Shown here: positions 15,801-63,757 of the stretch, one piece after another | How the letters are laid out: every line of letters starts with the position of its first letter | How positions within the stretch are numbered: position 1 is the first letter of the stretch | Assembly (NCBI RefSeq): GCF_003573695.1 | Contig: NC_039362.1 | Span: 8,222,088-8,286,087, forward strand | Length of the DNA stretch: 64,000 bases | Reading direction: 5' to 3' | From: Papaver somniferum | Taxonomy: Eukaryota; Streptophyta; Magnoliopsida; Ranunculales; Papaveraceae | Position numbers and translations under genes: made by a program | Notes under the pieces: model-generated | Seen by the model: the letters and a program-made list of their open reading frames with translations, nothing else | Told to the model about the DNA's origin: nothing | The model's database searches: none

Positions 15801-17157
15801 CGAAAAAGAAACCAAGCAACGTTTGTTTACTTTCACCTCATTCCCTTTCTTAAGCCAAGAAAGTTTATATGGATGCGGATGTGCCTTGGTTTCCAGCCTA
15901 AACCGTTTCACGACCTCTTCGTCAATAATATTCTCGCAACTTCCAGGATCAATAACTAAACGACAAACTTTTCCCTCGATCGTACATGTCGACTGGAATA
16001 TATTATTACGTAACCAGTTGTCGTCCTCATCTGTACGTGGAGTGAGAAAACTTCTTCTTGCTACAAAGTTCACCTGTATCTCCTGTAACTACTTCATCAC
16101 TAGGTTCAGAGTCATCCTCTGGATCCTCATCATATTCAGGTACCCAATCATCTTCTTCACGATTGTCTTCATTGAAAAGAACCTTGTTCACACGTTCTAC
16201 TTTGCGACAGTCAGTGCCTTTGTGCCCAGTTTCACCGCACTTATTACACTTGCCTCCAAAATAGCTGATTGGAGTTTTACTTGGGTTCGAAACCGAATTA
16301 GGTTTGTTAACAGTACTAGTTGTTGACGTACTACGATTACTTGTTGGGGAAGATGCTACATTGTTACCCCAATTTGAACTTCTACGCCCCACTTGTTTCT
16401 CTACCTGCCTTGCTCTATGATGTGCATCCGATATAGAACAACAGTCAAACATGTTAAGTGTATCCTGATATTGCTGAGGAAGACCACCTACATAACGTGC
16501 GACTCTTTGCTCATCTGACTCCGACAAATCGTTAAGAGAAAGTAATCGATAAAATTCCTTCGTGTACTCGTCTATAGAACGTGTTCCCTTGCGTAGGTTT
16601 TGTAGTTGCTGGTACATCAAGCTGATATAGTTGTGTGGTAAAAATTCTGCTCTCATATGTTTCTTCATCTTCTCCCACGAGACTAACTTCTGCTTCCCTT
16701 TACGAGAGCGTTGTAGTTTGTGTTGTTGCCACCACGAATTAGCTCTTCCCCGAAACATAGTTGCTACCAGCTGAACTCGTTTGTTATCTGGTACATCCTT
16801 AAATTCCAATACTTCCTCAGCTGTGTTCAACCACGAAAGAAACTCCTCCGGTTCTAAACCTCCATAGAATTCTGGAACCTCCACTTTTATTCCGGCCTTC
16901 CAGCGCTCAGAATCGTCACGTTGGATTATCCTACCTTCACGGCGTCCTCTACCAAAAGGGTTGGTATAATCCCCTTCTTCGTTGGTATTATCCCCTTCTT
17001 CCTCGTCTCCTTCTTCATGATGAATGTTATTCTGACCCATCATCACTCGGATTTCATTCAATAATTCTTCCTTCATCGTATTATAATCAATTGGATCAAC
17101 TTCTTGGCCTCGAACACGACCTCGACCACGACCTCGACCAACTGGTAACCTTGGCAT
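12799..17157 (-). pseudogene. CRM-like gag-pol, left-hand copy, frameshifted
   Basis: Homologous along its full length to the intact copy at 17736-22097, and nearly identical where aligned by eye. All polyprotein blocks are visible but split over at least five frames. Small deletions relative to the intact copy lie at about 14080, 14261, 14296, 14527, 15605 and 16071, with a complex change at 14023-14040. The in-frame start is the ATG at 17157, as in the intact copy. The integrase end (12799-14028) is itself uninterrupted. The scatter of single-base losses in an otherwise near-identical copy could be real decay or residual long-read assembly errors. As written, it cannot produce a polyprotein. 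Confidence 0.85.
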
Positions 17158-17179
17158 ATTACTAACCCTGGAATCAACT

Positions 17180-17194
17180 GGCTCTGATGCCAAC
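17180..17194 (-). other. Primer-binding site, left-hand CRM-like copy (altered)
   Basis: On the minus strand this reads GTTGGCATCAGAGCC directly after the middle LTR. It differs from the intact copy's GTTGGTATCAGAGCC at one base inside the tRNA-complementary part. Confidence 0.75.
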
Positions 17195-17796
17195 TGATGC
17201 AGCGGATATTAGAGAAACTAGAGAAAAAGAAGTGTTGTTCAGACTTCAAATATTCCTAGGAATATCGACTATGAACGTTGATTAATATCTAGACTTCGGT
17301 TTCCCAACTTTAGATAAAAATCGATTAAACTTGAACAAAGTTTGATAAAGAAGATATATATTCCAAAAAAGTTGCCCTAAACAATTTATGATGGACTCTT
17401 TTATAGACTTGGGGAAAAACCCTAACTTGCTAGTCAAGAAAGGATGAAAAAACCCCCTAAACCGACTCAGACCCTAATTTGCTATTTTTGGCAAATTTTG
17501 GTCGACCTAAAATAATGAAAGTACTCATAAAATAAAACAATTCGCCTCAAACGGCGGCCCAAACAGACTCCTAACGAAAGAGTTATTAACAAAATAAAAA
17601 CTTTCCTAAAATAGCAAAAACGTATGTTTGATGCCCTAAACGATGGAATTTGGCTAAATTCTGAAGACCAAGGCAATCAAAGATTCCTTGTCCTGTTCTT
17701 TGGCTTGTTTCCCATCGAAATGGACCCCTAAGGATCTAAATTACGACACTTGGATTTTTAGCCTCCAAATAGGCTATAGCCTGCTCATCTGCATCA
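17195..17796 (-). mobile_element. CRM-like LTR, middle (shared)
   Basis: 602 bp. It serves as 5' LTR of the left-hand copy and 3' LTR of the right-hand copy. Its TATA box CTATAAAAGAG (minus strand) lies at 17396-17406. No TSD separates it from either neighbour. Confidence 0.9.
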
Positions 17797-20700: not shown

Positions 20701-22097
20701 ATGTCACACCATATTTTATCTTTATATTTGTTACCAATCGAAAAAGAAACCAAGCAACGTTTGTTTACTTTCACCTCATTCCCTTTCTTAAGCCAAGAAA
20801 GTTTATATGGATGCGGATGTGCCTTGGTTTCCAGCCTAAACCGTTTCACGACCTCTTCGTCAATAATATTCTCGTAACTTCCAGGATCAATAACTAAACG
20901 ATAAACTTTTCCCTCGATCGTACATGTCGACTGGAATATATTATTACGTAACCAGTTGTCGTCCTCATCTGTACGTGGAGTGATAAAACTTCTTCTTGCT
21001 ACAAAGTTCACTCCTGTATCTCCTGTAACTACTTCATCACTAGGTTCAGAGTCATCCTCTGGATACTCATCATATTCAGGTACCCAATCATCTTCTTCAC
21101 GATTGTCTTCATTGAAAAGAACCTTGTTCACACGTTCTACTTTGCGACAGTCAGTGCCTTTGTGCCCAGTTTCACCGCACTTATTACACTTGCCTCCAAA
21201 ATAGCTGATTGGAGTTTTACTTGGGTTCGAAACCGAATTAGGTTTGTTAACAGTACTAGTTGTTGACGTATTACGATTACTTGTTCGGGAAGATGCTACA
21301 TTGTTACCCCAATTTGAACTTCTACGCCCCACTTGTTTCTCTACCTGCCTTGCTCTATGATGTGCATCCGATATAGAACGACAGTCAAACATGTTAAGTG
21401 TATCCTGATATTGCTGAGGAAGACCACCTACATAACATGCGACTCTTTGCTCATCTGACTCCGACAAATTGTTAAGAGAAAGTAATCGATAAAATTCCTT
21501 CGTGTACTCGTCTATAGAACGTGTTCCCTTGCGTAGGTTTTGTAGTTGCTGGTACATCAAGCTGATATAGTTGTGTGGTAAAAATTCTGCTCTCATATAT
21601 TTCTTCATCTTCTCCCACGAGACTAACTTCTGCTTCCCTTTACGAGAGCGTTGTAGTTTGTGTTGTTGCCACCACGAATTAGCTCTTCCCCGAAACATAG
21701 TTGCTACCAGCTGAACTCGTTTGTTATCTGGTACATCCTTAAATTCCAATACTTCCTCAGTTGTGTTCAACCACGAAAGAAACTCCTCCGGTTCTAAACC
21801 TCCATAGAATTCTGGAACCTCCACTTTTATTCCGGCCTTCCAACGCTCAGAATCGTCACGTTGGATTATCCTACCTTCACGGCGTCCTCTACCAAAAGGG
21901 TTGGTATAATCCCCTTCTTCGTTGGTATTATCCCCTTCCTCCTCGTCTCCTTCTTCATGATGAATGTTATTCTGACCCATCATCACTTGGATTTCATCCA
22001 ATAATTCTTCCTTCATCGTATTATAATCAATTGGATCAACTTCTTGGCCTCGAACACGACCTCGACCACGACCTCGACCAACTGGTAACCTTGGCAT
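17736..22097 (-). CDS. CRM-like Ty3/gypsy gag-pol polyprotein, intact
   Basis: A single uninterrupted 1453-residue frame from the ATG at 22097, the first in-frame ATG after the primer site. In order: an Arg/Gly-rich N-terminus; retrotransposon gag domain (about 86-260); zinc knuckle [14 protein letters not shown] (304-317); aspartic protease with DPGS at 404-407, where DSG/DTG is usual; reverse transcriptase (about 600-800) with YFDD at 747-750; RNase H starting near DAS 895; integrase with an H2C2 zinc site (H1076, H1080, C1109, C1112) and DDE residues D1141, D1202 and E1238; and a GPY/F-like module at about 1377-1412. No classical chromodomain follows. The last 20 codons run into the LTR, as in CRM elements with a C-terminal CR motif. 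It would supply capsid, cDNA synthesis and integration functions. The DPG in the protease is the one catalytic-region oddity; the other copy shares it, so it is likely ancestral. Confidence 0.92.
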
Positions 22098-22120
22098 ATT
22101 ACTAACCCTGGAATCGAACT

Positions 22121-22135
22121 GGCTCTGATACCAAC
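22121..22135 (-). other. Primer-binding site, intact CRM-like copy
   Basis: GTTGGTATCAGAGCC on the minus strand directly follows the 5' LTR. It is complementary to the 3' end of initiator Met tRNA. Confidence 0.88.
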
Positions 22136-22737
22136 TGATGCAGCGGATATTAGAGAAACTAGTGAAAAGAGAAGTGTTGTTCAGACTTCAAATATCCCTA
22201 GGAATATCAACTATGAACGTTGATTAATATCTAGACTTCGGTTTCCCAACTTTAGATAAAAATCGATTAAACTTGAACAAAGTTTGATAAAGAAGATATA
22301 TATTCCAAAAAAGTTGCCATAAACAATTTATGATGGACTCTTTTATAGACTTGGGGAAAAACCCTAACTTGCTAGTCAAGAAAGGATGAAAAAAACCCCT
22401 AAACCGACTCAGACCCTAATTTGCTATTTTTGGCAAATTTTGGTCGACCTAAAATAATGAAAGTACTCATAAAATAAAACAACTCGCCTCAAACGGCGGC
22501 CCAAACAGACTCCTAACGAAAGAGTTATTAACAAAATAAAAACTTTCCTAAAATAGCAAAAACGTATGTTTGATGCCCTAAACGATGGATTTGGCTAAAT
22601 TCTGAAGACCAAGGCAATCGAAGATTCCTTGTCCTGTTCTTTGGCTTGTTTCCCATCGAAATGGACCCCTATGGATCTAAATTACGACACTTGGATTTTT
22701 AGCCTCCAAATAGGCTATAGCCTGCTCATCTGCATCA
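22136..22737 (-). mobile_element. CRM-like LTR, right (5' LTR of the intact copy)
   Basis: 602 bp, nearly identical to the other two. It would drive transcription of the intact polyprotein. Confidence 0.9.
22338..22348 (-). promoter_or_regulatory. TATA box of the CRM-like 5' LTR
   Basis: CTATAAAAGAG on the minus strand, about 200 bp before the LTR end. It is conserved in all three LTRs. Confidence 0.6.
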
Positions 22738-29187: not shown

Positions 29188-30059
29188 TTATTTATGGGTG
29201 AAAATCTTTTCTGCCGATTTTGGTAATTCCGGTAGGTGAGTGAGAAACAGATCTAAACCCTAAACAAAAGTACTGCACGTGAGTACTTTAGATTCGAGAG
29301 ATCAATCTGTACAACTCCGGCCTAAACCAAGAAATGGTTGTTCCGGATTTGCTTCGGTCACAAAGAGGAGGAGAAGGGCTGGTTTAGGGAGGGAAGCAAA
29401 GAGAGTGTTAAGACCAGAACAGTTCTGGAAGAGTATTACTTGACTTGTATCAGAAGGTGAAATCTTTTGGGAAAGCTAGCAAAGTTGCCTTTCTGAGTAT
29501 TGTATTTCTCCTGACCAAAACTTGTTGTCTTGGTGGAAATAGGTAAGACCTATTTATACAAGTCTAAGTGAAATGTACTCTAGCCTCGTAAGAAAAAGAA
29601 ACGGATGAGTTAAATGGGAAGAGGTGGTAACGCCTGGTATTGATGGAATTGATGTTCCATAATGAAAGAGCGTTTCACCATTACTTCCTGCATTTACTAA
29701 CCGTTTTATCCTTTATACACTGTTTTGAAACGGGCATTTGTGTATGCCGCACGCTGTAAACCGCCAAACCAAAACCTTAAAGAGCATCCCCCAGTTTGTG
29801 ACATGTATTGATGTCTTGAGTGTTTTCGTGGAAAACGTGTAGCATGTCGCTGATGTTTGATAAGTTGAGCTTGAGAGATGTGCCGGCTCAGTGCCGACCA
29901 TCGACGGTCGAGATTTTGCATCTTGAGAGGAATCGTGGCCTTTGATGTATGCGGCACATGCCAAAGTGCAAGGGTCGCATGGCATGTGCCAATGGCTTGT
30001 GTGGAATTCCTTGGATGTAGGTTGCGCATCGGGTGCAGGTGGCAATGCCAAAATGCAAG

Positions 30060-30945
30060 TGTTGCATGGCATGTGCCAATGGCGCGCGTAGCGGCTTGGG
30101 ACCTAGGTTTTCACGGCTAGGCATGCTAGGTCGCAAGCGTCGCTTGGCATGTGAAAATGGCGCGTGTGGCGGCTTGGCCCTAGGTTTGCACGACTTTGCA
30201 TGCTAGGTCGCAAGCGTCGCTTGGCATGTGCCAATGACGCGTGTGGCGGTGTGGCCCTAGGTTTGCACGTCTTGGCATGTTAGGTCGCAAGCATCGCTTG
30301 GCATGTGCCAATGGCGCGTGTGGCGGCTTGGCCCTAGGTTTGCATGGATTGGCATTCTAGGTCGTAAGCATCGCTTGGCATGTGCCAATGGCGCGTGTGG
30401 CGGCCTGGCCCTAGGTTTGCACGTCTTGGCATGCTAGGTCGCAAGCCTCGCTTGGCATGTGCCAATGGCGTGTGTGGCGGCCTGGCCCTAGGTTTGCACG
30501 ACTTGGCATGCTAGGTCACAAGCGTCGCTTGGCATATGCCAATGGCGCATGTGGCGGCCTGGCCCTAGGTTTGCACGGCTTGGCATGCTAGGTCGCAAGC
30601 GTCGCTTGGCATGTGCCAATGGAGCGCGTGGCGGACTGTCCCTAGGTTTGCACGGCTTGGCGTGCAAGACCGCAAGCGTCGCTAGGCATGTGTTAATGGC
30701 GCGTGTGGCGACTTGGCCCTAGGTTTGCACGGCTTGTCATGCTAGGTAGCAAGCGTCGCTTGGCATGTGCCAATAGCGCGTGTGGCGGCTTGGCCCTAGG
30801 TTTGCACGTCTTGGCATGCTAGGTCGCAAACGTCGCTTGGCATGTGCCTATGACGCGTTTGGAGGCTTGGCCCTAGGTTTGCACGGCTTGGCATGCTAGG
30901 TCTCAAGCGTCGCTTGGCATGTGCCAACGAAGCGTGTGGTGCAAT
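30060..30945. repeat. 77-bp minisatellite in LTR copy C
   Basis: About 12 units of the same 77-bp repeat, in the GCTAGGTCGCAAGCGTCGCT version found in copy B. Confidence 0.9.
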
Positions 30946-30984
30946 GATTGTGCAACTCGAATTTGGCACGGTTTTCGTGAAGCA

Positions 30985-31560
30985 CAATGATTGTGAGGCT
31001 TTGGTTTTAGCATAGCTGCCATGATGCGCAGAGATCGTGCGTCTTGGTTTTGGCATGGTTGCCATGATGCGCAGCGATCGTGCGCCTTGGTTTTGGAATG
31101 GTTTCCATGATGCGCAACGATCGTGCGCCTTGGTTTTGGCATGGTTTCCATGATGAGCAGTGATCGTGCGGCTTTGGTTTTGGCATGGTTGCCATGTTTC
31201 GCAGCGATCATACGGATTTGGTTTTGGCATGGTTGCCATGATGCGCAGCGATCATGCGGCTTGGTTTTGGCATGGTTTCCATGATGCGCAGCGATCGTGC
31301 GGCTTGGTTTTGGCATAGTTTCCATGATGCGCAACGATCGTGCGGCTTGGTTTTGGCATAGTTTCCATGATGCGCAGCGATTATGCGGCTTTGGTTTTGG
31401 CATGGTTGCCATGATGCGCAGCGATCGTGCGGCTTGGTTTTGGCATGGTTTCCATGATGCGCAGCGATTTTGCGGCTTTGGTTTTCATGATGCGCAGCGA
31501 TTGTGCGGCTTTGGTTTTGGCATAGTTTCCATGATGCGCAGCGATTGTGCGGCTTAGGAT
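30985..31560. repeat. 43/44-bp minisatellite in LTR copy C
   Basis: About 13 units of the GGTTTTGGCATGGTTTCCAT / GATGCGCAGCGATCGTGC repeat. One unit near 31480 is shortened. Confidence 0.9.
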
Positions 31561-31723
31561 TTTGTGTGTCGAAACCCTAGTTTAGCATTTGAAAAAAGAT
31601 ACCCTGGTAATTTTTTACATAAGTGCATTAAATGTTCTAATAAATGTGTTTAGCGTCACGGTGACGTCATGCTATGCGTAAGGTTTTACGATTTTACCCC
31701 TTGTCTAAAAACCACCATCAACA

Positions 31724-42914: not shown

Positions 42915-43949
42915 TAAATGATCTCACCCACAACTAGGAGTTGATGCGACCCAAAGTCGAAGACTTTAATAAACAAATCTGTCTCACACAGAAAAGTCTA
43001 CAATAATAGATAAATATGTCTCCCGCAGAAATACCTACAATTTTTCTTTCCGTCTTCTGATAAATCAAGGTGAACATGAACCAATCGATAACCCGGACTT
43101 TTATTCCCGAAGAACAGCCTAGAATTACCAATCACCTCACGATAATCTTAATCGACTAGCGAACAAGATATTGAAGAATCACAAACAATGAGACGAATAT
43201 GTTTGTGACTTATTTTTTATCTTGCCTATCGGATATATAAATCTCAAGCCAATCTTATGATTGCATTCAATCACGATAGAAACAGCTAGATCAGATCACG
43301 TAACTACAAAGAAAATAATTGGGTCTGGTTCACAATCCCAATGAAGTCTTCAAGTCGTTAACCTACAAGGTCTCGGTAGAAACCTAAGGTTAAAGGAGAA
43401 TCCAGTCTAGCTTATACAACTAGTATCACACATGAGGTGTGGGGATTAGTTTCCCAGTTGCTAGAGTTATCTTTATATAGATTTCAAATCAGGGTTTGCA
43501 ATCAATGTTAGATTAGTGACAAAGCATTCAATATACACCGTTAGATGAAGACCTGATTATATTCAAGCTAATATCTTTCAACTGTTAGATCGAATCTTAG
43601 CTTGTTATATCCAAATGAAATATACTTCATTTAGGTTTGAGTAACCATACCTAAATGTGTACACTTAGTTGGTTCAACTGTATTTAACCAAATGGTTAGC
43701 CATATGAACATTTTCATATCAACCTTATTCATCTTCACCATAACTAGTTCAAACGACTTCAAAAGAACTAGTTAGAGAGTTGTTCAACTGCTTAGATCTC
43801 ATAGAAGTATACAGGACACAATCGAAGAACAATCGGTTTGATTCACTTGAATCGATTCATGAACTTTATAGCCACGGTTTGCAAAGATTGCATTCCTTAT
43901 TATATAAAATTTTAAGTTCATGAACAGACCAATTTTAGAAAGTAACACA

Positions 43950-44200
43950 CTTAAGTATGCGTGCTTAAGTAACCGGATTTGAGTTTGTTTAAGTTTCCAA
44001 ACGCAACAGAAACTCACGGAAGTGAACTTTCCGCCAGTATGCGTATGGGTACGCATACTTAGGTAACCAGAATGATTTTGTTTCAAGTTTACAAACTCAA
44101 CAGAAATTCACAGACGTGAACTTCCGCAGTATGTGTACGGGTACACATACTCATCCAGTTTCCATCAACCAATTGTATACACACAAGTATGCACACTTTA
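43950..44200. repeat. Array of GTATGCGTAC-type motifs in a copia LTR
   Basis: Four motifs, for example AGTATGCGTATGGGTACGCA and AGTATGTGTACGGGTACACA, sit in repeats of about 70-90 bp that also share AGAAAYTCACRGAMGTGAAC. Confidence 0.75.
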
Positions 44201-44798
44201 GGTTCCTGGTTTTTGAACTTATTCACTAATGTGCAAATACACTAAGCTTATATGCAAAGATGGTTACATGTTCTAAACTCTCATTTCAATCATTGAAACA
44301 TTCTTAGAGGATGTTATATAGAGGTTATTCACACACTATTTTTCATCAAAGCAATTTTCAAGATATTGAAATGATCAACACGACTTTCTTCACTTATAAA
44401 GATGAACTTGACCAAAGAGAAAGCTTACCAACACATATTTCGAGAAATAGATAAGCGATATAAACTCGACTCAAAATAGCAAATGTGTATAATCGAAGTA
44501 TATATAGCAATACGACTTTTATCTCAGGATAGGATAGAGTAGATAGACTTTTGAGTGATAGATAAGTTCAAATGTACACATAAATTTTTGTCGATGAAGA
44601 TCCACCAGTTCCTTAAGCAGTTATTCGTCTTTGCAGTATAAACGTCGTGGAGTCTAGAGCTCAACGACACTTACTATCCTAGTCCGAGACTTAGCTATAA
44701 GTAGACTATAAATCAAGACTTATAGTTTTGGAAACTAAACTTGACAATCAAGATTGAGATAGTAACGCTTGCAAGTTCGACCAAGAAGTTCTCTAACA

Positions 44799-45312
44799 TT
44801 TTTGTTGGGTGTTTTTCACTAGAACGCACATCTTCTCTTTTACTTTCTAAATAACCCCCTTGAACGCACCATTTTTTCCTTCCATTCAAAATAATTATCA
44901 TAATGTGTGGAAGTATCAGGACCCCTAATACTGTGAGCTTGACGCTGATCCGTCATCGGTACCAATGCAATCTACAAAACATCACAAGTTAGTTGATATG
45001 TACTACAATATTCGGTAGGGTCGATATGTAAAACAACAACGACCAAAGAACAACCGGCTTGGTCGAAGAATAACACAGTGCCGACCATACTACAGTCGGC
45101 AGAGTCGACGTATCAAAAAAAATGCCAACTTAAGCATGTTTCAAATTAAGTCTCCTGTGCTGCAAAAATATTATAGTCGGCAGGGTTCATATTTTTGACC
45201 TTGCCGATTAAACACTGCTCATGAAAAATCGTGGCATTATGTAATGAAGACCATGCCGATACTGGGCAGAAAAAGTGAGAAAAAAAAATCCATCTTTTTG
45301 CATGGAAAAATC
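44799..45312. other. No gene; scattered TCGGCAGGGTCGA-like motifs
   Basis: Degenerate CGGYAGRGTCGA words occur at about 45012, 45098 and 45180, and CCTTGCCGA inverted at about 45220. No coding sequence is supported. Confidence 0.4.
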
Positions 45313-45564: not shown

Positions 45565-45812
45565 ATCCGAAATTTCACAAAACACACAACTTTTTCCCCA
45601 CAAAACTTCCTCTACTACTTCATACTCTTTCTTACTCTCAATTATTTTCAAATCCACTCATATAAATCAACTAACTAATTCTAGTAATTTAACTAATCTA
45701 ATCATTTAGTTTTAATCATTGTAGGGGTAATTTTAGCCATTTAAAAAATACGTAGTTAAGGGGTGTCTTATTTTACTTCATAATGATCTAGGTTTTGCCT
45801 TTTATTAGGTAT

Positions 45813-46910
45813 GGGACACGATCGGCTTACAGGGTCTAGTCTCACGGATTCTCACAAGGTGACGGTGATCGTCAAATCCTGAAATCTAGACGGATGGGAT
45901 TATTTTAAATTATCTTGGTTATCCGGGTTGTCCGTCCCATGAGCCGTAACAACTTCATATTTTCTAGTTGTCATTCTTCTCCATTTATGTTAGAGGAAGA
46001 CAAAAATTTGATTCTTCTTTTTGAGGAACATAAATGCGATGCTTTTTTTTTCTTTCTCCGGAGCAGTATTATCAAATCAAGGGGTATTATTACTTGATAA
46101 AAATTGGAGCATTAAAAATTCTAATAATGAAGAATCAGACCCAAATCCTACGATCATATCAAAACCCATTTTTAAAACATGATGATTAAACAGAAACCCC
46201 TTTTCTCTCAAGATTTTACTATTGATTTCAGAGATTTTGTTTTAATAGGACAATTAGTGGTACATTAGCGGAGAAACCCAAATCAAAAAATTGAATGCTA
46301 CACTAAAGAGTCATTTAAGATATGTTGGCAATTTCATTGGATTCAATCTCTAGAGGTAATGATTTTTCACGTGGTGTAAGATCGATCTAGTGGCTTAATT
46401 TCTTTTGTGGATTACTTCTACAAATTCATGGTCTTCTTCTCTAAGACCTAAATGTTATTTTCTGAGATTTTTTTATGGGGTTCATGCTACTTTCATTCCA
46501 TTGTTCAAAAAAACTACTAATCAAATCAAGCAAAGTTCATCTTTGTTATCATCTAACAAAATGTCAATCTAGTGGGATTAAAATGTAGATCTCTATCTCT
46601 TTGATATATTTGATATATAAGATTTTCTATTTTTCTTAATCACACCAAGAAAACATCATAGGCTTAATACTTACGAAATTCGTGAAAACATCATAGGTTT
46701 AATCAGAAACAACGGTTTCAATTTCAATTTTGATTAGGAATTTTGTAGCAAAAGATTAGATATCGTGGAATTTTTTTCACATGGGTCACGGGTAACCCGG
46801 ATTACCCATATAATTTTATAACAATCTCATCCGTCTAAACTTCAGGATCTGACGATCACCGTCGCCCTGTGAGAGTCTGTGAAACTATACCCTGTCAGCC
46901 GATCGGCCCC
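45813..46910. mobile_element. Mutator-like non-autonomous element with long TIRs
   Basis: The left end (45813 to about 45941) and the right end (about 46779-46910) are inverted copies over about 130 bp. Both contain GACGGTGATCGTCA, TCTCACA and TAGACGGATG in order, and the ends read GGGACACGATCGGCT versus inverted GGGGCCGATCGGCT. The 1098-bp unit has no ORF. Flanks ATTAGGTAT and ATTAGAAGT (9 bp each, six matches) could be a diverged 9-bp TSD. Long TIRs and a 9-bp TSD are Mutator hallmarks. Confidence 0.75.
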
Positions 46911-46988
46911 ATTAGAAGTTCCTATGGAATGGCCAAACACAAAGTTTGTTCATTTTGATCCCACTATGGGATGAACAAACCAAGAAAA

Positions 46989-47028
46989 TCGATGTTCAAA
47001 TGAACAGATCTGTTCATTTGAACATCGA
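46989..47028. repeat. 40-bp perfect palindrome
   Basis: A contiguous perfect inverted repeat centred on AGATCT (47006-47011), each arm reading TCGATGTTCAAATGAACAGA. It has no spacer and could form a cruciform or hairpin RNA. Confidence 0.9.
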
Positions 47029-47247
47029 GACACTCTAATAGGCGCGGGTCTGCTGAAATGGCGCGCGCCATGTCAAATAACTCTGGCGACATCCTGGATG
47101 ACGCACGAGTTTTTAACCAAAACGCGCGTTCTTCCGCAGAGCGGCAGCGTCATCTCCCTAAACGCCAGCGTCTGGATCGATGTCGCCAAAGGCTCCATCT
47201 GAACGGTTCAATGATTTGGTGATCCAATGGCTACATTTTTTTCATTC

Positions 47248-47256
47248 TATAAATAC
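47248..47256 (+). promoter_or_regulatory. TATA box, first Myb-like gene
   Basis: CTATAAATA, about 64 bp before the ATG, followed by a CT-rich leader ending CTACAGAAATG. Confidence 0.65.
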
Positions 47257-47319
47257 TCCTCATTTCAACTCTAAATTCACACATTCTACACATTCTTCTC
47301 TCTCAAATCATCTACAGAA

Positions 47320-47754
47320 ATGCCTCCAAGAGTTCGTGCAGTTAGATTCACTCAACAAGAGGATTTACCTATTTGTAGAGCCTTTGTTTTTCACAAAGAA
47401 GATACTGTCATGCGTAATGTAGCCGATTCGACGTTGAATTTCTGGGAGAAAGTTTTCAGAATGTTCTCCGCTGAAACGGGGAGCATCCATGGGCGTGATT
47501 CTCATGGATTGCAGAATTGTTTTAGTGTAATTAGTACGAATGTATTGGAGTTCGTCGCCCAACTAATACAGAATTACCGAAATAAGCTCAACGGTGAAGC
47601 CGAACATGAAGTGTTTCCCAGAACTCTAGGGATGTGGCCAGCATCTCACCGCGGTCGTCCTTTCGACTTCCATGCTTGTTTCAACATTCTTAGGGTGCTC
47701 AACAGATACGATCCCTATATCGCCCTAGGAATTCCACCACCCTCCGAGAATTGA
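47320..47754 (+). CDS. Myb/SANT-like small protein
   Basis: 144 residues from the ATG at 47320, which has a TATA box and leader in front. RFTQQEDLPICRAFVFHKED and LNFWEKVFRMF resemble the trihelix/Myb-like fold (FT--ED--LC-A... FW--V---F) found in plant proteins annotated as GST-T3-like or NAM-associated, and in ORF1 of PIF/Harbinger elements. RGRPFDFHACFNIL toward the end matches the FxFxxCxxxL closing segment of that family. It is shorter than the usual 200-350 residues. The paralogue at 48789 shares the leader and start region. A DNA-binding role is inferred from the fold only. The frame is intact. Confidence 0.55.
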   Translation: MPPRVRAVRFTQQEDLPICRAFVFHKEDTVMRNVADSTLNFWEKVFRMFSAETGSIHGRDSHGLQNCFSVISTNVLEFVAQLIQNYRNKLNGEAEHEVFPRTLGMWPASHRGRPFDFHACFNILRVLNRYDPYIALGIPPPSEN

Positions 47755-47978
47755 CGCATGTGTAGTAGTTGTTTTAATTTAATGTATTTCTTTTATTCTC
47801 ATGTATGATGTGGTTGTTCAATGCAGTATGTTTTTATTTATGAAATTGATGGTGCAATGTCTAATCGAAGTGAAATTTAAATTACTTGATATTGATGGTT
47901 TTAGATAATCGTAATAACACATAATAAACAACAAATTAAATAACATAATACCATAGTGAATTGATTTGTCCTACAACT

Positions 47979-48479
47979 TCAATCATCCCACTCCACCAAA
48001 AAACACCTGGGACATTCCCAAAAATTCCTTCCATATGTGTCTTCTTCAGAAGAAGTCCGCAAATGCATAAAAGTCCGGCAACCGGGCTTTGAGCATGAAC
48101 TGATTCTCTGTGGACAATGTTTGTATTCGTGATTTCCATATCCACAATGCTTGCAGTGTAATAACTCCTTCTTCAATTTGGCTTTAAGTTTGAAATTTTT
48201 GCACATTGTTGCAATCTTTTCTTATTCTTCTTTTTTAATCTTCATAGCATCATCTAGCATATGTGGTTCCTATGGAAAATTGGGATCTTGACATTGCAAA
48301 TACCTGAGCTTTTCTGGTTGTGATTCGATCACCATTTTGATGCGTGGACAACCTTCTCGCGGACACTTTGAATACATCCAAGGACATTGCATAAGACTGT
48401 GGTTACCCATGAAACATAATGGGCAAACCTCTTTTGCTTGGACACATAATATTTGCTTCGATTTTCCTTTAGAAAACAT
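47979..48479 (-). pseudogene. Zinc-knuckle/GRF-like protein, two in-frame stops
   Basis: One minus-strand frame from the ATG at 48479 contains CPLCFMGNHSLMQCP and then, after stops TAG (48270-48272) and TAA (48222-48224), CKHCGYGNHEYKHCP, a CSKPGC pair and GRNFWECPRCFLVEWDD. The first two blocks are C-x2-C-x4-H-x4-C knuckles. The last resembles a GRF zinc finger (GR-F--CP, closing W-D), a nucleic-acid-binding motif. The frame is kept through both stops, which suggests recent inactivation, readthrough or base errors. A TATA box lies at 48533-48543 on the minus strand. It shares a divergent promoter with the downstream Myb-like gene and converges on the upstream one. Confidence 0.6.
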
Positions 48480-48532
48480 GGTGGATGATGTGAGAGATAT
48501 CGGTTGGTTTGGTTTAGAGTAAAATCTAGTGA

Positions 48533-48543
48533 TGTATTTATAA
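48533..48543 (-). promoter_or_regulatory. TATA box of the zinc-knuckle gene
   Basis: ATTATAAATAC on the minus strand, about 55 bp before its ATG. With the plus-strand TATA at 48703 it defines a divergent promoter of about 310 bp. Confidence 0.6.
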
Positions 48544-48580
48544 TAGAATATAGGCGTTGGTAATTCAAACGGGCGCTTAA

Positions 48581-48625
48581 AGTAAATTCTCGGGCGACTT
48601 CACTAATGTTGCCCGAGACTTTACT
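48581..48625. repeat. Hairpin at the centre of the divergent promoter
   Basis: Arms 48581-48595 (AGTAAATTCTCGGGC) and 48611-48625 (GCCCGAGACTTTACT) are inverted with one mismatch and a 15-base loop. The hairpin sits about midway between the two TATA boxes. Confidence 0.8.
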
Positions 48626-48702
48626 ACGAACGCCAACGGCTAAATTTCCATTTCAAACGTCTAAATTTCCATTTCCAATGGAAAATTTTTCGTTCACAAA
48701 TC

Positions 48703-48710
48703 CTATAAAT
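48703..48710 (+). promoter_or_regulatory. TATA box, second Myb-like gene
   Basis: CTATAAAT, about 85 bp before the ATG at 48789. It excludes the upstream in-frame ATG at 48606 as the real start. Confidence 0.65.
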
Positions 48711-48788
48711 TTTATTCATTCTACGTCCAAAATCACATCTTCTTCTTGTTCTTTTTTTTTCTTATATCTCTCATCCTCCTTTGCAGAA

Positions 48789-49556
48789 ATGTCTCTTAGA
48801 AATCATGGTCCCAAGTTTACCGAAGAAGAGGATATAACTCTATGCAAAACATATTTCTTTCATAGGGTAATCACTGGTGTTCTTATTTCTCATGAAAGTT
48901 CTTTTTGGGAGAACGTGTTTTCAATGTTCGTCTCATTGACTGGAAACCCAGGAAACCGAAATGCTCGTCAATTGCGTGCTCGTTTTCAGCATATTAGGCT
49001 TACAATCCATCCATTTCTTGCTTTGGTAATAGAAATTGATTGAGAAAAGTTCAACGGTGTAACTGAAGATAAAGTGATTCAAATAACTCTTGATAGTTGG
49101 GAGGAAGCTCACGGTAAGCCTTTTCGTTTCGAAGCGTGTTTCAGAATTTTAAAAGATGGTCCATCTCAAGCACATCGTTACTGCACTCGAATGCCGCTGC
49201 CGGAATTTACAATGGAAGAAGATGTTGCTCTAGTTCGATGTTGTTTACATCGTATGGCGAGACTAATGAACCATGACAATTTCTGGGAAAGAGTATTTGG
49301 ACATTTTGTAGTATCGTGGAACGAATCAATAAGAAACAATAAGAGCCTAGAACTAAGAATTACATTCATCAGCAATGAAGTCAAACATTATACAGAAATA
49401 TTGTGTATGGTTCATCGTAGCAATTCTGGATTATCCAACGAAGAACTGAAAACCATCACTCAGACCAAGTTTACCGAAGAACGCGGGAGAGAGTATAGGC
49501 ATTTTGAATTCTATGAACTTTATAGAGAGAATGTCGCTGGATTTGATGCAGTTTGA
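48789..49556 (+). pseudogene. Tandem Myb/SANT-like protein, one in-frame stop
   Basis: Starts at the ATG at 48789 because of the TATA at 48703 and a leader ending TTGCAGAAATG like its paralogue at 47320. The first domain has KFTEEEDITLCKTYFFHR, SSFWENVFSMF and ARQLRARFQHI. A TGA at 49041-49043 interrupts, but the same frame continues EKFNGVTEDKV...GKPFRFEACFRIL, the family's normal continuation. A second domain follows: FTMEEDVALVRCCLHRM, NFWERVFGHF, and a C-terminal FxFYxLYxEN-type block ending at 49556. It is thus a fused or duplicated version of the neighbouring single-domain gene. With the stop only the first 84 residues would be made. Confidence 0.6.
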
Positions 49557-49759
49557 TGTTTTTGTCGTGGTTTATTGTTATTTGCAAGTTTAATAAATTG
49601 TAATAAATTTCACTTTTAATCTGAAGTGGAAATCTATTTTAAAAATATAAACATTTTCATTCATTGTTATTACTGCCAATTCTTTTACAAGATATAAACT
49701 TAGAAAATAATAAAAACGTCAATGAAAATCAAGTACAAGTTTTGGCCTCCTGTTTATCT

Positions 49760-49990
49760 TCATTTGACGCGCTCTTTGACAGTTTCACCTTTGTTTTTGA
49801 ATTTTTTGTTGTTAACTTTCAAAACTGGAGCTCTTCTTTGCCTTTTAGCGGAACATTTTCTTGGAGCAACAACTTCTAAAACTTGCACTTCCCTTTTACA
49901 ATTCTCAATCTTTTTAAAACCCCCACATATCTTAGAAACAACAGCTTCAAGTTTTGCATCGCAAAAAAGTGTGATCGCCTTTCCAGCCAT
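49760..49990 (-). CDS. Small basic protein of the four-gene unit
   Basis: 76 residues from the ATG at 49990, with TATA box TAATTTATAG (inverted CTATAAATTA) at 50048-50057 and a normal plant-style leader. MAGKAITLFCDAKLEAVVSK is followed by a Lys/Arg-rich tail (RKCSAKRQRR, NNKKFKNKGE). It contains three cysteines but no recognised domain. The basic tail suggests nucleic-acid binding or nuclear location, as inference only. It faces inward at the right end of the unit and converges on the second Myb-like gene. Its promoter and intact frame make it more than a chance ORF. Confidence 0.45.
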   Translation of the reverse strand: MAGKAITLFCDAKLEAVVSKICGGFKKIENCKREVQVLEVVAPRKCSAKRQRRAPVLKVNNKKFKNKGETVKERVK

Positions 49991-50047
49991 TTTAGAAGAG
50001 AAAATTCAAGTGAACTTTGGTGTGAGTGAATTGTTCGAAGATGATGG

Positions 50048-50057
50048 TAATTTATAG
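50048..50057 (-). promoter_or_regulatory. TATA box of the small basic gene
   Basis: CTATAAATTA on the minus strand, 58 bp before the ATG. It matches the CTATAAAT boxes of the other genes in the unit. Confidence 0.6.
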
Positions 50058-50309
50058 AGGGAAAAAGTAATGTTAGAAAATTTAAAAACTATCCGTTAGC
50101 GTCAGCACCAAAAACTCGGGCAATGGCACTGGTGACTCCATGTCACCCTTCCTGACGCCAGTGTTTGCGTGCAGGACGCCAACGTTTTGCCATTGAGCGT
50201 CAGCGTATGTATCCAGGTCGCGCTCCTATTAGCCTAGCGCCCAGTGTTTTTCCATAGTGGAAAACCCAGTTTGGCCATCCACCTAATTTGCCAAGGTTCT
50301 TTTATAAGA

Positions 50310-51646
50310 CGTTTTTTCTTTTCTTTCTTAAAGGTTTTTTTTTGTTTAACTTCTAGGATATGTTCTTCTCTCTCGACTTCTCCCTCTGAACCAGAAACTC
50401 TCCTCGCCTCTCATATCTTCTATCTTCTTTTCTTTCATTTTGAGGTAAGGGTTCCTCCTATTTCATTTCTAGTCTAACTGCCTTTATGGAATTATTTTTC
50501 GGTCGAATTAAGGTTTTAATTTGATTCCAATGATTTACGGTTTCATCTCTTGTTACAAAGTTTGAAACTTTACCAGTGATAAGAGTTAAGTAGAGTCTGA
50601 TTATTTCCCAAATTTTTATTTTTCCAAATAGAATACGATGAGATCCCGTTGTTACTCTGGATTTGACATGATCAAACCTATATTACCAGGCTATTAGATT
50701 GCTTTAATTATTTGATGTTTAGGTTTTGATCCGATCTACTTAATTTCTTAGTATCCGTTTTATTTTCTCTATCCAATTTCATGGATCTGAAATTGGATTC
50801 ATGGTTATCCCGATTCTGTGATCCTAAACTATTTATGCATTGGTCTACAGTAGTCCCTCGTAATTCTTTTTGAAGATTATCTTTTCTAATATTAAATTTT
50901 GTTGCTTAATTTTTTTCTTTCAGAAAAAAGAACGGTAGTGATCCACGGATTTATTTTAGGTAAGTAAAGATGATGATGCTTATTCTTGTACCTTGTTGTG
51001 TTTTAGAAGGAGTTAGAAACCTGATACGCGCAGGACTTGTCTGGCTTAGTTTCCCGATATAGGCCAATCTCTGGCGGTATCTTCCAGAAACGCGTTTACA
51101 TATGTCAGGGGTTAGTCCACGAGTGAGTTGAGAGGAGTTTAATGTATTTTGGATCTTGGGGATTTTGAGAGAGTATAGGTAGTTTGAGAGAATTTGGTGT
51201 TTTGATTGTAGGGAGTTTGAGAGACTCTCCCAAAATATATACTCTTTGAGAGATTTGGAGTGAGGCAAAAATACACTATAAACTCCCCAAAAAAAAACCC
51301 CAACTCCCTAGCATTCTAGTTTTTACCACTAACAGGGAGTTTAAGAGTTTCTTTCAAACTCCCCCACGACTAACGGGGTTTTCTAGGGAGTTTGGGAGAC
51401 TCTTCTAAACTCTCCCACGACTAACGGGGATTTTGAGAGACTCCTTTGAACTCCCCCACGACTAACGGAAAACAACTCAACTACACCCAACTCCCACAAC
51501 TCCCTTGAGGACTAACACCCTATGTGTATATATACAGAGGACTAAGTTATTATCCTGTATGTATAATTTTATTTGATCATCTCTAAGAAAACCCTATTTA
51601 TCAACACCAAAGCTTGCTTAGAAAGAGATAAAGTTGAAGAAAAATC
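50310..51646 (+). other. Putative leader exons and introns of the F-box gene
   Basis: A CT-rich stretch (about 50330-50430) with no long ORF ends at TGAG|GTAAGG (donor at 50445). A strong acceptor TTTTTTCTTTCAG lies at 50911-50923. A short exon follows, then a second donor TTTTAG|GTAAGT at 50960. An acceptor candidate GCTTAG (51616-51621) lies just before the F-box ATG at 51647. This looks like a plant 5' leader with two introns, the second carrying the MITE at 51107-51521. The exon structure is inferred from splice signals only. Confidence 0.4.
51107..51521. mobile_element. MITE-like element with imperfect TIRs
   Basis: The left end AGGGGTTAGTCCACGAGTGA and the inverted right end AGGGTGTTAGTCCTCAAGGG match with small gaps. 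The inside is rich in inverted GAGTTTGAGAGACTC / ACTCCCCCACGACTAACGGG words. It is about 415 bp without an ORF. No convincing TSD was found. Confidence 0.6.
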
Positions 51647-53076
51647 ATGAAGCGATATGGTGATACTTCTAAATTTCCTCCTCTCATGCCCCATCGTGTT
51701 ATGGGTAATGAATTATTATCTAAGTTTCCTCCTCTTACGAGTTGTACTAGTCATCCTATTGTGGGCAATGAGTTATTACTTTGTGAGATGCTGACTAGGG
51801 TCCCTGTAAAACCACTCATGAGGTTCAAGTGTGTATGCAAACAATGGTACTCCTTGATACATACAGATCGAAGCTTCATCGATTTACACTTCGCACGATC
51901 AAAATCATGTAATTTTGCTGGTGGTGATGGTAGTGTCTCCCTTTTTAGGTTTTCGTATCAACTTCGTGTTTTCTCCTCAGTTGAACTATTACTGTCTCAA
52001 GGAAGAGTAAAGGCTGTTGAAAGGGAAATATCTATACCAGGATCTTCTCTGGTACACGTTTTTGGAGCTATCAATGGGTTAATTTCTGTAATAGAAACCA
52101 GCACATGTTCTGTTCGTGTGTTCAACCCGAGCACGGGACAGTCAACACCTTGGGTAAAATCCATGATTAAACAACAAAGTGAAAATCCACCGGAGGAAAT
52201 ACTAGCTATAGATGAAGATGGTGATTATGCAACTTACAAGGTTACTTATGGTCGTGGACCGTGGCATTACTTTGGGTATGATCCTGCTACTAAAGAACAC
52301 AAAGTGGTTATTATGTGGATCAAGGAACACAAACTGTATGTGAGGTCATGACCGTTGACTGTAGACATAACAACAACATTATATTATGGAGAAGGCTGGA
52401 TTTATTCCCGCCAACAATTTCACCGTTGGAATTCACTTCATTATCCCTTTACGTAAATGGTTGCATTTATTGGCTGACTCACCCATCTAAAACTAAGGAA
52501 CCTTTGATTGTCGAATTTAATGTCGGGAGCGAAAAATTTAGAGCAATTTCAGTTCCCAATTACATCATTGAAGAAACTCGTTATCCTTATGCTAGTAAGT
52601 TGATACAAATCGGTGGTCGTTTAGCTGTGTTAGCTTTGAAGATAAGGTGGGATGCTGAGTGTTCTTATCCTCCATTAAATAACAACACATCGATGTAGAT
52701 GTGTGTGTTATATGATGGCGATGATGTTCAACACAAGAAACTGACAGGTATTAGTAATGCAACAACTTCTACAAGCAGCGCAGGCACTGTTAGGGATTTC
52801 TATTGGATAGAAGAGACCTTCATGGTACCGCCTTTTAAATGGAAACCGAAAATGTGTAATTCCATTTTAGCTGTTCCGGATACAGATTTGCTCATCATAA
52901 TGTCCGAAAAAGGGGATGATCCGTCATTCTATTTTTACGACTGGAGGAAGAAGAGATTTAGCAAGGATGTGCAGTTTATTCTGAAGGGTCAAAAGTCTCC
53001 CTATCGTGAACCTTTACGATTTGGGGCTTTCATTTACAAAGAAAGACTCCTTCCTGTGCCCACTAGAGAAGTTTAG
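51647..53076 (+). pseudogene. F-box protein with FBA-type C-terminal domain, broken
   Basis: Starts at the ATG at 51647. ELLLCEMLTRVPVKPLMRFK and CVCKQWYSLI form the F-box (residues about 40-85), the Skp1 contact of SCF ubiquitin ligases. An unusual duplicated leader (SKFPPL...NELL twice) precedes it. The FBA region follows: INGLISVIE, VFNPSTGQSTPW and YFGYDPATKEHKVV. A frameshift at about 52335-52345 moves the reading to EVMTVDCRHN...ILWRRLDLFPP and YVNGCIYWLT. An in-frame TAG at 52696 then interrupts before a further 125 codons (CVLYDGDDVQ...FYWIEETFMVPPF) to 53076. All three parts align in family order, so it is one gene of about 470 codons with two lesions. These could also be base errors. 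Confidence 0.85.
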
Positions 53077-55415: not shown

Positions 55416-55818
55416 GAAAGAAAGAACAATAAGAAAAAAAAGATGATCCCAGAAGAGCAGAACTCAGTAATCGATTCACTTATTAGGACAAATTTAATTT
55501 TTTTATTTATTTTTTCAAACTCCGACTGAACCACTGTGGCTGGTGGATGCTTCAAAAAAGAAAATGGAGCTGGTGGTCATATTATCTACCAAAAGTACCC
55601 AAAATAGTAAAGTCCGTCCCAAATCATGTCAGTTCCCAAGAACTAATAGTGTAACTGTTCCTTGTCTGTCTTGGACTCTTGGACGGAGCTGACAGAATAA
55701 CTTTTACTTAGCCGAACTGTCGGATACACATAACTGACAGTACACACCTTCTGTTTTTATCTCTCTGACAATTTTATTTCTCACTGAAAGTGACATTGAC
55801 ATTCTCTACGGCTAACTA
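54971..55818. other. No gene; A-rich tract at 55374-55442
   Basis: AT-rich DNA with an almost pure A run of about 28 bases, then A/G-rich sequence. It could be the tail of a retroposed sequence on the plus strand, but the upstream sequence is not recognised. Confidence 0.45.
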
Positions 55819-55913
55819 TTCCCTTCCGGTACATACAATAAAATTGGAATGATAAAGTGAAGATTAGTATGGCCCCGCACAAGGATGACACACAAATCGG
55901 GAAATGGCCCAAA
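55819..55913 (+). pseudogene. U6 snRNA retro-pseudogene
   Basis: Matches plant U6 spliceosomal RNA end to end with scattered changes. CCCTTC near the start, AATAAAATTGGAA, AGATTAGTATGGCCCC, ACAAGGATGACAC and CACAAATCGGGAAATGG appear in the right order and spacing. Differences include a damaged 5' stem and a lost base pair in the GCGCAAGG region. No U6 upstream element or TATA at the proper distance is seen. The 3' end runs into A8 instead of a T-run terminator. These are marks of a reverse-transcribed copy, not a working gene. Confidence 0.88.
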
Positions 55914-56099
55914 AAAAATTGACTGCTGAGAACCGGCAACGAGTACGTTTTGTAATTCGAAAAACATTGATGTATGTTTATCATGTTTCTTCTGGGATCA
56001 GGATTTATTGGCTAGTGGAGTTTCTTTATGTTATTGTTTTTTCTTAGTTTATACTTTTTATTTTATTTTATTCTTTTATTGGTGTTTGAGATCAAGGTC

Positions 56100-61255: not shown

Positions 61256-61260
61256 ATGGA

Positions 61261-63757
61261 TGTTAGAGCACTGCTCGGTCGAACTCGCAACCGTTGTTAT
61301 CTCAAGCTTGTTTGTGAAGTTTAGTTGTCAAAACTATAAGTCTTGATTCCTAGTCTACTTATAGCTAAGTCTCGGATTACGATAGAATGTGTAGTTGAGC
61401 TTTAGACTTCACGACATTCATCGATTGAAGAAGAAGAACTACTAAGGGGAGCTTGTGGAACTTCATCAGCAAAAGGTATGTGGAGACTCGAAATCATCTA
61501 TCACTCAGAAGTCTATTTTTATTATATCTCCTATAGAGAAAAATTTTCGTATAGCTATATAGATTTTATTTTATACACATTTGATATTTCGAGCTGAGTT
61601 TAACCCGCTTACATATTTCTCGAAATATGTGTTGGTAAGATTTTTCTTTAACCAATTTCATCATTTATTATTGACGAAAGTCAAAAGATGATCATGTGAA
61701 AATCTCCTGGTAACATCTTACATGATTTGTGTGAGACGGTCATTTGATGTAGACTCAGAATGTTTTGTATTGATTATTTGATCACTTGAAAATTTCTTTA
61801 AAGCTAATAGTTTGTGTGAGATATCTATTCTCGTCTTCCGAGAATGTTTGAATGATTGAAATGGAGTTTAAAACAATTAACCTTTGATTGCATATAGCAC
61901 TTTATGCGTACTGTTGCAAATATAATCCAGGTCTGGGAACCATAGTATGCATACCCGTATGCGTATTAGTTTGAAAGTTGAAGTCCGGGAAATATAGTAT
62001 GCATACCCGTATGCGTATCGGCATAACAGTTCATGTCCGGGAATTACACCGAGATTGGTCATGTACGACAATATGCGTACTTTTTCGCATACTGGCGAAC
62101 TCATACCAAGTCTGGCTACTAGGGTATGCGTACCCGTTTGCATACTTGAGTGGGTTATGTTCTAAAATTTGTTTACTCATGAACTAATACATTTATATAA
62201 TAAGGAATGCAATCTTTTGCAAATCGTGGCTATAATGTTCATAATCGATTCAAGTGAATCGAAACCGATTTTGCTTCAATTGTATCTTGTATACTTCTAT
62301 GACAATATAAAAAATTGAACAACTCCATAACTAGTTTCATTTGAGTCATTTGAACTAGTTGTGATAAATATGAATAAGGTTGATATGAAAGTGTTCATAT
62401 GGCTAACTTCGGTTAACTATTGTTGAGCCAACTAAGTGTACACGTTTAGGTACGGTTATCCATATCTAAATGAAGGTACATTTCACATATGTGTAACAAG
62501 CTAAGACAATATAACGGTTGAAAGATATTAGCTTGAATCTAATCAGGTTTTCATCTAACGGTGAATATTGAATGTTTTGTTACCAAGGTAACATTGATTG
62601 CAAACCTTGATTTGAAGACTATATAAGGGATAACTTTAGCAACTGGGAAACCTAATCCCCACACCTCTTGTGTGATACTAGTTGTGACTAGAGTCGATTC
62701 TCCTTTAACCTAGTTTTTTCTAAAACCATTATAGGTTAACGACCTAAAGAATTCATTGGGATTCTGAAGTCAAATCCAACAATTTTCCGTGTAGTTGCGT
62801 ATTCTGATCTTACTTTATTTTATCGTATTTGAGTACTATTTTCTCTAAGATTTGCTCGAGATTTATCTTCGATAGGTAAGATATAAAAAGTAATCACAAA
62901 GCTGTTCATCTCATTCTTTGTGATTCCACAATATCTTGTTTCGCTTCCACACGAATAAGATTATTGTGAGGTGATTGATATTACTAGGTTGTTCTTCAGG
63001 AATATAAGTCTGATGTATCAATTGGTTCATGTTCACCTTGATTTATCAAAACACGAAACAAAAACTCGTAAGTATTTCTGTGGGAGACAAATTTATCTAT
63101 TCAATAGACTTTTCTGTGTGAGACAAATTTGTTTATCGAGTCTTCGACTTTGGGTCAGCAATTCTTGGTTGTGGGTGAGATCATCTAAGGGCATCAAGTG
63201 CGTAGAGTCTCGCTGGGATTCAGAGGAGTAAGGAACGCGAATGTATCTTAATCAGTGTGAGATTGGTTAGGGCTCAACTACATTTCAGTCCGAATTTAAT
63301 TTGTAGTATGCTAGAGTCTGTAGCGTCTTAATACAATGTGGTTTTAAAATTGGACTAGGTCCCGGGGTTTTTCTGCATTTGCGGTTTCCTTGTTAACAAA
63401 ACTTCTGGTGCCCGTGTTATTTCTTTTCCGCATTATATGTTTATGTAATTGAAATTTCACAGGTTATGCGTAGTTCAATCAATTAAATAATCCAACTTTT
63501 GGTTGTTGATATAAATTGATTCGCACTTGAACATTGGTCCTTGGTACCGTTTAAGTTTTTTCTCATATTAATCCGGCTCATGGATTTCTATCTGTTTGAT
63601 TGAAGATTGATTTGAGAAACTGAGAATAACTCTTGGATATATTTTCCTTGATTGATTCTGGCTGTCTAGTTGATTCTCTAGGAAGTTATATTGGAGTTAG
63701 TCCATACAGATTGCCTAAACGAAATATTAGGTGTTGTTGTTAGACCCCCGTTTTTCA
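61261..63757 (+). mobile_element. Complete solo LTR, SIRE-like copia
   Basis: 2497 bp from TGTTAGAGCACTGCTCGG to GTTAGACCCCCGTTTTTCA, flanked by ATGGA (61256-61260) and ATAGA (63758-63762) as a one-mismatch 5-bp TSD. No primer site follows and no internal sequence is attached. It serves as the reference copy for the other LTRs here. The TATATAA box lies at about 62622. Confidence 0.85.
61942..62145. repeat. Array of GTATGC/GCATAC motifs in the solo LTR
   Basis: GTATGCATACCCGTATGCG near 61946 and again near 62000, a diverged version at about 62070-62090, and GTATGCGTACCCGTTTGCAT at about 62124, 52-74 bp apart. Each repeat also carries a CCGGGAAxTA or CCAGGTCTGG-like spacer. Confidence 0.8.

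What the first reader, a model, noticed from the sequence alone, without database searches (positions are those of the whole stretch)
46926..50280. A compact four-gene unit with transposon-like ends and alternating orientations
Seen: four ORFs arranged + - + -, each behind its own TATA box (47248, 48543 minus, 48703, 50057 minus); GC-rich terminal and central stretches; end sequences sharing GG(A)ATGGCCAAAC, CCACTATGG and CTAATAGG-GCGCG in inverted order. Family knowledge: Myb/SANT-like proteins form ORF1 of PIF/Harbinger elements, and zinc-knuckle and GRF fingers bind nucleic acid. Inference: this may be an undescribed family of DNA elements that carry DNA- and RNA-binding proteins but no visible transposase. 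The layout also looks like a two-fold duplicated module (Myb-like gene plus a convergent partner).
Basis: partly seen in the sequence, partly recalled or inferred. Interest (0 to 1): 0.8.

Follow-up and report, generated by a model that had tools for sequence, protein, structure and literature searches.

The report
Decayed four-gene plant transposon-like unit
A 3.4-kb stretch of what looks like plant DNA has matching inverted ends and four small genes with look-alike promoters, two of the genes now broken, and it is most likely a worn copy of a mobile element that carries DNA- and RNA-binding helper proteins but no visible transposase.

Summary
The unit is real. I re-bound it as 46925-50281 (3357 bp).

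Ends: three words match in inverted order; none of 7676 other same-geometry placements sampled in the window has three.

Genes: ORF1 is intact and Myb-like. ORF3 is two tandem ORF1-type domains with one in-frame stop. ORF2 is a double zinc-knuckle protein with two in-frame stops. ORF4 is a short basic ORF. ORF1 and ORF2 have relatives on other contigs; the ORF2 relative is unbroken.

New here: ORF1 and ORF3 are a DNA-level duplication that includes the promoter (E 1e-22). A box, TYGCCCGAG, occurs three times in 64 kb, facing ORF2, ORF3 and ORF4; ORF1 has a weaker copy. Two boxes form a palindrome at the unit's midpoint.

Best explanation: a worn non-autonomous DNA element, probably grown by duplication from a two-gene ancestor, whose proteins bind its own ends or promoters. 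Superfamily unknown; plant PIF/Harbinger end features are not met.

The decisive test, further genome copies, could not be run (18 of 18 requests unanswered). Mobility is inferred, not shown.

The parts
46921..46924 (.). CCTA, candidate target-site duplication, left
   Evidence: Read (left flank ends CCTA, right flank begins CCTA). Four letters only, so weak.
46925..46938 (+). Left terminal inverted repeat TGGAATGGCCAAAC
46944..46980 (+). Left hairpin with loop CTA inside CCACTATGG (limits from the fold)
   Evidence: fold of 46926-47050
46989..47028 (.). Perfect 40-nt palindrome inside the left end
47035..47042 (+). CTAATAGG, inverted partner at 50225-50232
47183..47191 (+). Promoter box of ORF1, relaxed form (TCGCCAAAG)
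   Evidence: 66 nt from the TATA box
47248..47254 (+). TATA box of ORF1
47320..47754 (+). ORF1, intact, 144 aa, Myb-like
   Evidence: (relative at 71% identity over 67% of the query)
47979..48479 (-). ORF2, 166 codons with two in-frame stops; two CX2CX4HX4C zinc knuckles; the stretch after the second resembles a GRF finger (by recall)
   Evidence: unbroken 166-aa relative, 87% identity; internal repeat, tested on the relative P0003
48536..48542 (-). TATA box of ORF2
48589..48597 (-). Promoter box of ORF2 (TCGCCCGAG)
48575..48632 (.). Central palindrome, centre 48603.0, the midpoint of 46925-50281 (outer limits approximate)
   Evidence: (0 of 100 shuffles reach its score)
48609..48617 (+). Promoter box of ORF3 (TTGCCCGAG)
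48704..48710 (+). TATA box of ORF3
48789..49556 (+). ORF3, 255 codons with one in-frame stop; two tandem Myb-like domains
49760..49990 (-). ORF4, intact, 76 aa, 28% Lys+Arg, no Pfam match; not searched in the protein set
50050..50056 (-). TATA box of ORF4
50115..50123 (-). Promoter box of ORF4 (TTGCCCGAG)
50225..50232 (-). CTAATAGG, right copy
50248..50264 (-). Right hairpin with loop CTA inside CCACTATGG (limits approximate)
50269..50281 (-). Right terminal inverted repeat TGGATGGCCAAAC
50282..50285 (.). CCTA, candidate target-site duplication, right

Best explanation
It is a worn, non-autonomous DNA element of 3357 bp, probably in a plant genome. It grew from a smaller ancestor in which one Myb-like gene and one convergent partner gene faced each other between two inverted ends. 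Duplication of the Myb-like gene together with its promoter (shown), perhaps by formation of a head-to-tail dimer whose inner ends shrank to the central palindrome (inferred), gave the present + - + - order. All four genes are driven from the ends or the centre by promoters that share a TATA box and a box (TYGCCCGAG, exact in three, relaxed in ORF1). The Myb-like proteins most likely bind the subterminal or promoter DNA of the element. They would either position a transposase supplied from elsewhere, as the PIF/Harbinger ORF1 protein does, or keep the element's promoters active, as VANC proteins do for VANDAL elements. The zinc-knuckle protein would bind nucleic acid beside them. Shown: ends, boxes, gene duplication, two broken genes, relatives of two genes on other contigs. 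Inferred: mobility, trans-mobilisation, DNA binding, expression.
Confidence: 0.55

Rival explanations
1. It is an internally deleted or rearranged copy of a larger, ordinary autonomous transposon (PIF/Harbinger, Mutator-like or CACTA) whose transposase gene is missing here, so the four genes are accessory genes of a known superfamily.
For: PIF/Harbinger elements carry a separate Myb-like ORF1 (PMC2836001, passages), and VANDAL elements carry several genes including VANC (PMC10398659, passages). Two of four genes are broken, as expected of a worn copy.
Against: The layout is symmetric, with a convergent gene pair in each half and the palindrome at the midpoint; a random internal deletion would not be expected to leave that. 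The ends do not fit the plant Harbinger motif G(N)5GTT, and no TWA is shared by the flanks.
Confidence: 0.25
2. It is not mobile: a small cluster of host genes (nuclear Myb-like and zinc-knuckle genes) that arose by local duplication, with bidirectional promoters, upstream of an F-box gene.
For: Tandem duplication and shared promoters also arise in gene clusters. ORF2 has an unbroken relative at 87% identity, as a conserved gene would.
Against: The inverted ends bracket the four genes, a candidate TSD abuts them, two genes are dead, and the neighbour on the left is another worn inverted-repeat element.
Confidence: 0.15
3. A non-canonical Helitron or gene-capturing element: the right flank reads CCTAA|T, with a hairpin about 20 nt inside.
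For: A hairpin near the right end and CTAA followed by T at 50283-50287. The Helitron end rules are recalled.
Against: The left end also carries an inverted repeat and a hairpin with the same CCACTATGG loop, and no ATC is seen at 46910-46930. No Pfam Rep or helicase match.
Confidence: 0.05

Closest known systems
PIF/Harbinger transposons (ORF1 protein)
   Same: A separate small gene for a Myb-like DNA-binding protein; in Harbinger3_DR ORF1 binds the TIRs and interacts with the transposase (PMC2836001, passages)
   Different: No transposase; three Myb-like domains in two genes; TIR TGGA(A)TGGCCAAAC, not G(N)5GTT; flank CCTA, not TWA
VANDAL Mutator-like elements with VANC anti-silencing proteins
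   Same: Several genes in one element and degenerate TIRs; VANC proteins bind repeated short motifs in the element's noncoding DNA (PMC10398659, passages)
   Different: No transposase found; Myb-like and zinc-knuckle proteins; a short shared promoter box, no long tandem repeats
Non-autonomous elements moved in trans (MITEs such as mPing)
   Same: Moved by proteins encoded elsewhere, having no transposase gene (PMC2836001, passages)
   Different: MITEs are short and non-coding; this is 3.4 kb with four ORFs and four promoters
CACTA (En/Spm) elements
   Same: GC-rich subterminal regions with repeated short motifs, and accessory DNA-binding proteins (recalled)
   Different: The ends do not start with CACTA; the CACTA letters lie in an internal hairpin loop

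Membership tests
PIF/Harbinger | DDE transposase gene in the autonomous element | tested here: not met
   None of the weak Pfam rows for the four ORFs at E <= 1 is a transposase; no match at E <= 0.01 for the 13 other stop-to-stop frames of 60 or more residues
PIF/Harbinger | 3-bp TSD TWA | tested here: not met
   Flanks share CCTA next to the TIRs and the left flank within 7 nt of the border holds no TTA or TAA; rule from PMC4482050 (passages). One copy only
PIF/Harbinger | Plant TIR motif G(N)5GTT | tested here: not met
   Ends read TGGA(A)TGGCCAAAC; motif from PMC2213677 (passages)
PIF/Harbinger | Myb/SANT-like ORF1 | tested here: inconclusive
   Myb-like fold for ORF1; best Pfam match PF13873 for the first half of ORF3, E 0.029, below cut-off. 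Homology to a Harbinger ORF1 was not tested
VANDAL / Mutator-like | MURA/VANA-type transposase and 9-bp TSD | tested here: not met
   No transposase; flanks match over 4 nt only. One copy only
CACTA | TIR starting CACTA/G and 3-bp TSD | tested here: not met
   Ends start TGGA; CACTA lies inside the hairpins
Terminal-inverted-repeat DNA transposon, any superfamily | Inverted ends | tested here: met
Terminal-inverted-repeat DNA transposon, any superfamily | Several copies sharing borders at unrelated sites | not testable with these tools
   18 of 18 requests to the genome search were unanswered; the relatives are on short contigs whose DNA I could not read
Zinc-knuckle (CCHC) protein | CX2CX4HX4C | tested here: met
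   Twice in ORF2 and conserved in P0003; Pfam zf-CCHC_4 only at E 0.036, below cut-off
GRF zinc finger | PF06839 profile (accession recalled) | tested here: inconclusive
   Not among the Pfam rows at E <= 1; a TYGRxFWxCPxC stretch resembles it by recall; structure model of no use (pLDDT 30)

The most novel reading that the evidence does not exclude
A family of multi-gene DNA elements that carry no transposase but encode their own set of Myb-like and zinc-knuckle proteins, all four genes under one element-specific promoter box. The element would spread as a 'regulatory satellite', binding its own ends and promoters to borrow a transposase or to stay unsilenced, and would have formed by head-to-tail dimerisation with a palindromic inner promoter.
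Probability: 0.25. Interest if true: 0.75.

Novelty: new variant of a known kind. Interest (0 to 1): 0.5.

Why it matters
If copies with the same borders exist, this would be a transposon-like unit made only of regulatory proteins. The shared box in front of the genes then gives a direct test of whether the element's own Myb-like proteins bind and control it. It would bear on how non-autonomous elements keep coding genes and escape silencing, and on how two-gene elements grow into multi-gene ones. If only this copy exists, it is a local curiosity.

Tried and rejected
Further copies in the window: none seen; the two extra ATGGCCAAAC sites (13451, 18388) lie in Gypsy coding ORFs, and in tblastn of the four proteins against the window the rows outside the unit are all at E 0.4 or above. 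Viral and prokaryotic collections: no relatives of ORF2 or ORF1/3. Plant virus reading (bidirectional promoters, stem-loop): no NANTATTAC motif in the unit and no Pfam Rep match. ORF2/ORF4 paralogy: not supported; one of nine frame pairs of the two partner regions scored above all 300 shuffles, but the alignment is Lys-rich, runs through stops and is not in ORF4's frame, so I dropped it. Structure of ORF2: unusable. Solved-structure searches by sequence: nothing at E < 0.5. Pfam E 0.091 of P0001 to Imm19 and similar weak rows are taken as chance. Paper searches for the end letters, for GRF/zinc-knuckle/SANT elements, and for transposase-lacking Myb-like elements gave no title that describes this kind of unit in the capped listings that I saw; subscription papers are not held, so I do not claim it is absent from print. 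Four papers were opened, passages only. The host as a poppy relative was only a guess and was not tested (one search was a listing).
Full report
SETTING. The window looks like plant nuclear DNA: Gypsy-type retrotransposon domains and an F-box ORF, and a U6 snRNA match. That it is a plant is an inference from these; no organism was identified.

THE OBSERVATION. I re-bound the unit to 46925-50281, 3357 bp, 38.2% GC. The two ends share, in inverted order, ATGGCCAAAC, CCACTATGG and CTAATAGG. CCACTATGG and CTAATAGG occur nowhere else in 64 kb. Among 7676 other pairs of segments with the same sizes and distance, sampled every 7 nt, none shares three colinear inverted words of 8 or more bases; 25 share two, 891 one. 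The sizes were set after seeing the ends. A gapped alignment score is less decisive (7 of 2000 shuffle pairs, 41 of 2620 real pairs reach it). Directly outside, both flanks carry CCTA, a possible 4-bp target-site duplication, but four letters with a few possible offsets are weak. In both ends the CCACTATGG word forms the loop of a predicted hairpin; the left end also has a perfect 40-nt palindrome, which drives much of its fold score (z -7.3 left, -2.7 right).

THE GENES. ORF1 (47320-47754, +) is intact, 144 aa. ORF2 (48479-47979, -) has 166 codons and two in-frame stops. ORF3 (48789-49556, +) has 255 codons and one in-frame stop. ORF4 (49990-49760, -) is an intact 76-aa ORF, 28% Lys+Arg. ORF1, the first half and the second half of ORF3 are one protein family: 36% identity, tblastn E 6e-20 (ORF1 and ORF3a), and 28%, E 1e-7 (ORF3a and ORF3b). 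At the DNA level 47194-47688 matches 48647-49148 in direct orientation, 59% over 520 columns, E 1.4e-22 in a two-sequence comparison, so promoter, leader and coding region were duplicated together. ORF2 contains two CX2CX4HX4C knuckles in a repeated module (tested on the unbroken relative P0003: 0 of 2000 shuffles reach the internal score). ORF2 and ORF4 are unrelated by the test used.

THE SHARED PROMOTER. The box TYGCCCGAG occurs three times in 64 kb, once each in front of ORF2, ORF3 and ORF4 and pointing at that gene (0.25 expected; 0 of 100 shuffles reach three). I read the pattern off these promoters before counting it, so the shuffle count overstates its weight; that no fourth copy lies elsewhere in 64 kb does not suffer from this. 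The relaxed form TYGCCMRAG occurs five times, all inside the unit, one in front of ORF1 and one at 47081 (-) in the left end; this count alone is not significant, 21 of 100 shuffles reach five. Distances from box to TATA are 66, 54, 94 and 66 nt for ORF1 to ORF4; the 94 includes a 21-nt tandem duplication (48635-48676). Promoter pairs against shuffles: left/centre-plus 0 of 500, left/right 1, left/centre-minus 3, centre-plus/centre-minus 0, centre-plus/right 18, centre-minus/right 168.

THE CENTRE. The boxes of ORF2 and ORF3 stand back to back in a palindrome centred on 48603.0, which is the midpoint of 46925-50281; the best palindrome in each of 100 shuffles scored lower (14 at most, against 15; the left-end palindrome scores 20). 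Within the 309-nt spacer between ORF2 and ORF3 a hit on the midpoint is roughly a 1-in-100 to 1-in-300 coincidence, by my estimate. A head-to-tail dimer of an element with inverted ends would leave just such a palindrome at its middle, and would put the two Myb-like genes in direct orientation, as seen. Against this, the tip words of the ends are not found in the centre and the partner genes ORF2 and ORF4 are not alike. I hold the dimer as likely but unproven.

SURROUNDINGS. On the left, 12 nt away, ends another worn inverted-repeat element (about 45811-46912; arms 83% alike over 114 columns, about 134 columns). On the right, the border lies about 20 nt before a TATA-like sequence, upstream of an F-box ORF at 51647.

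MECHANISM. Most likely a non-autonomous element whose Myb-like proteins recognise its own end or promoter DNA. In the PIF/Harbinger element Harbinger3_DR the ORF1 protein binds the TIRs and interacts with the transposase (PMC2836001, passages read). In VANDAL elements VANC proteins bind repeated motifs in noncoding DNA and cause loss of silent marks (PMC10398659, abstract and passages). Either role would fit a gene set without a transposase. None of the steps (expression, binding, mobility) is shown here.

MEMBERSHIP. PIF/Harbinger: no transposase, no TWA flank, no G(N)5GTT end (rules; flanks), so I do not file it there. CACTA and Mutator-like ends and flanks also fail on this one copy. It meets the inverted-end criterion of TIR elements; the copy criterion could not be tested, since 18 of 18 genome requests did not complete (listed in Tried and rejected).

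VERDICT. A real and unusually organised unit, probably a transposon-like relic of unnamed superfamily with accessory genes only; interesting mainly if intact copies with the same borders exist.

Noticed in passing
45811-46912: Another inverted-repeat element (arms 83% alike over 114 columns); genes inside it were not looked for. It ends 12 nt before the unit.
   Followed up: partly
50300-52351: The unit ends about 20 nt before a TATA-like sequence and leader-like stretch upstream of an F-box ORF (51647-52351).
   Followed up: partly
12244-22423: Two Gypsy bodies apparently in tandem, spacing about 4937 nt; five compared 300-nt stretches are 99-100% alike. The second has an open 1453-aa frame with gag, RT, RNase H and integrase domains (17736-22097); the first is split into several ORFs.
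   Followed up: no
2500-3856, 7525-8685, 30055-31564: Three separate arrays of a 77-nt repeat followed by a 43/44-nt repeat, GC-rich.
   Followed up: no
43005-44799 and 61260-63101: A string of matching inverted arms, as of two copies of one repeat in opposite orientation.
   Followed up: no
55818-55918: U6 snRNA match over the full model, 61 bits.
   Followed up: no
46989-47028: A perfect 40-nt palindrome in an otherwise worn unit; it may be a separate small insertion.
   Followed up: partly
51334-51468: Short tandem repeats (41 and 51 nt units) containing GACTAACGGGG or a shorter form of it next to the F-box ORF.
   Followed up: no
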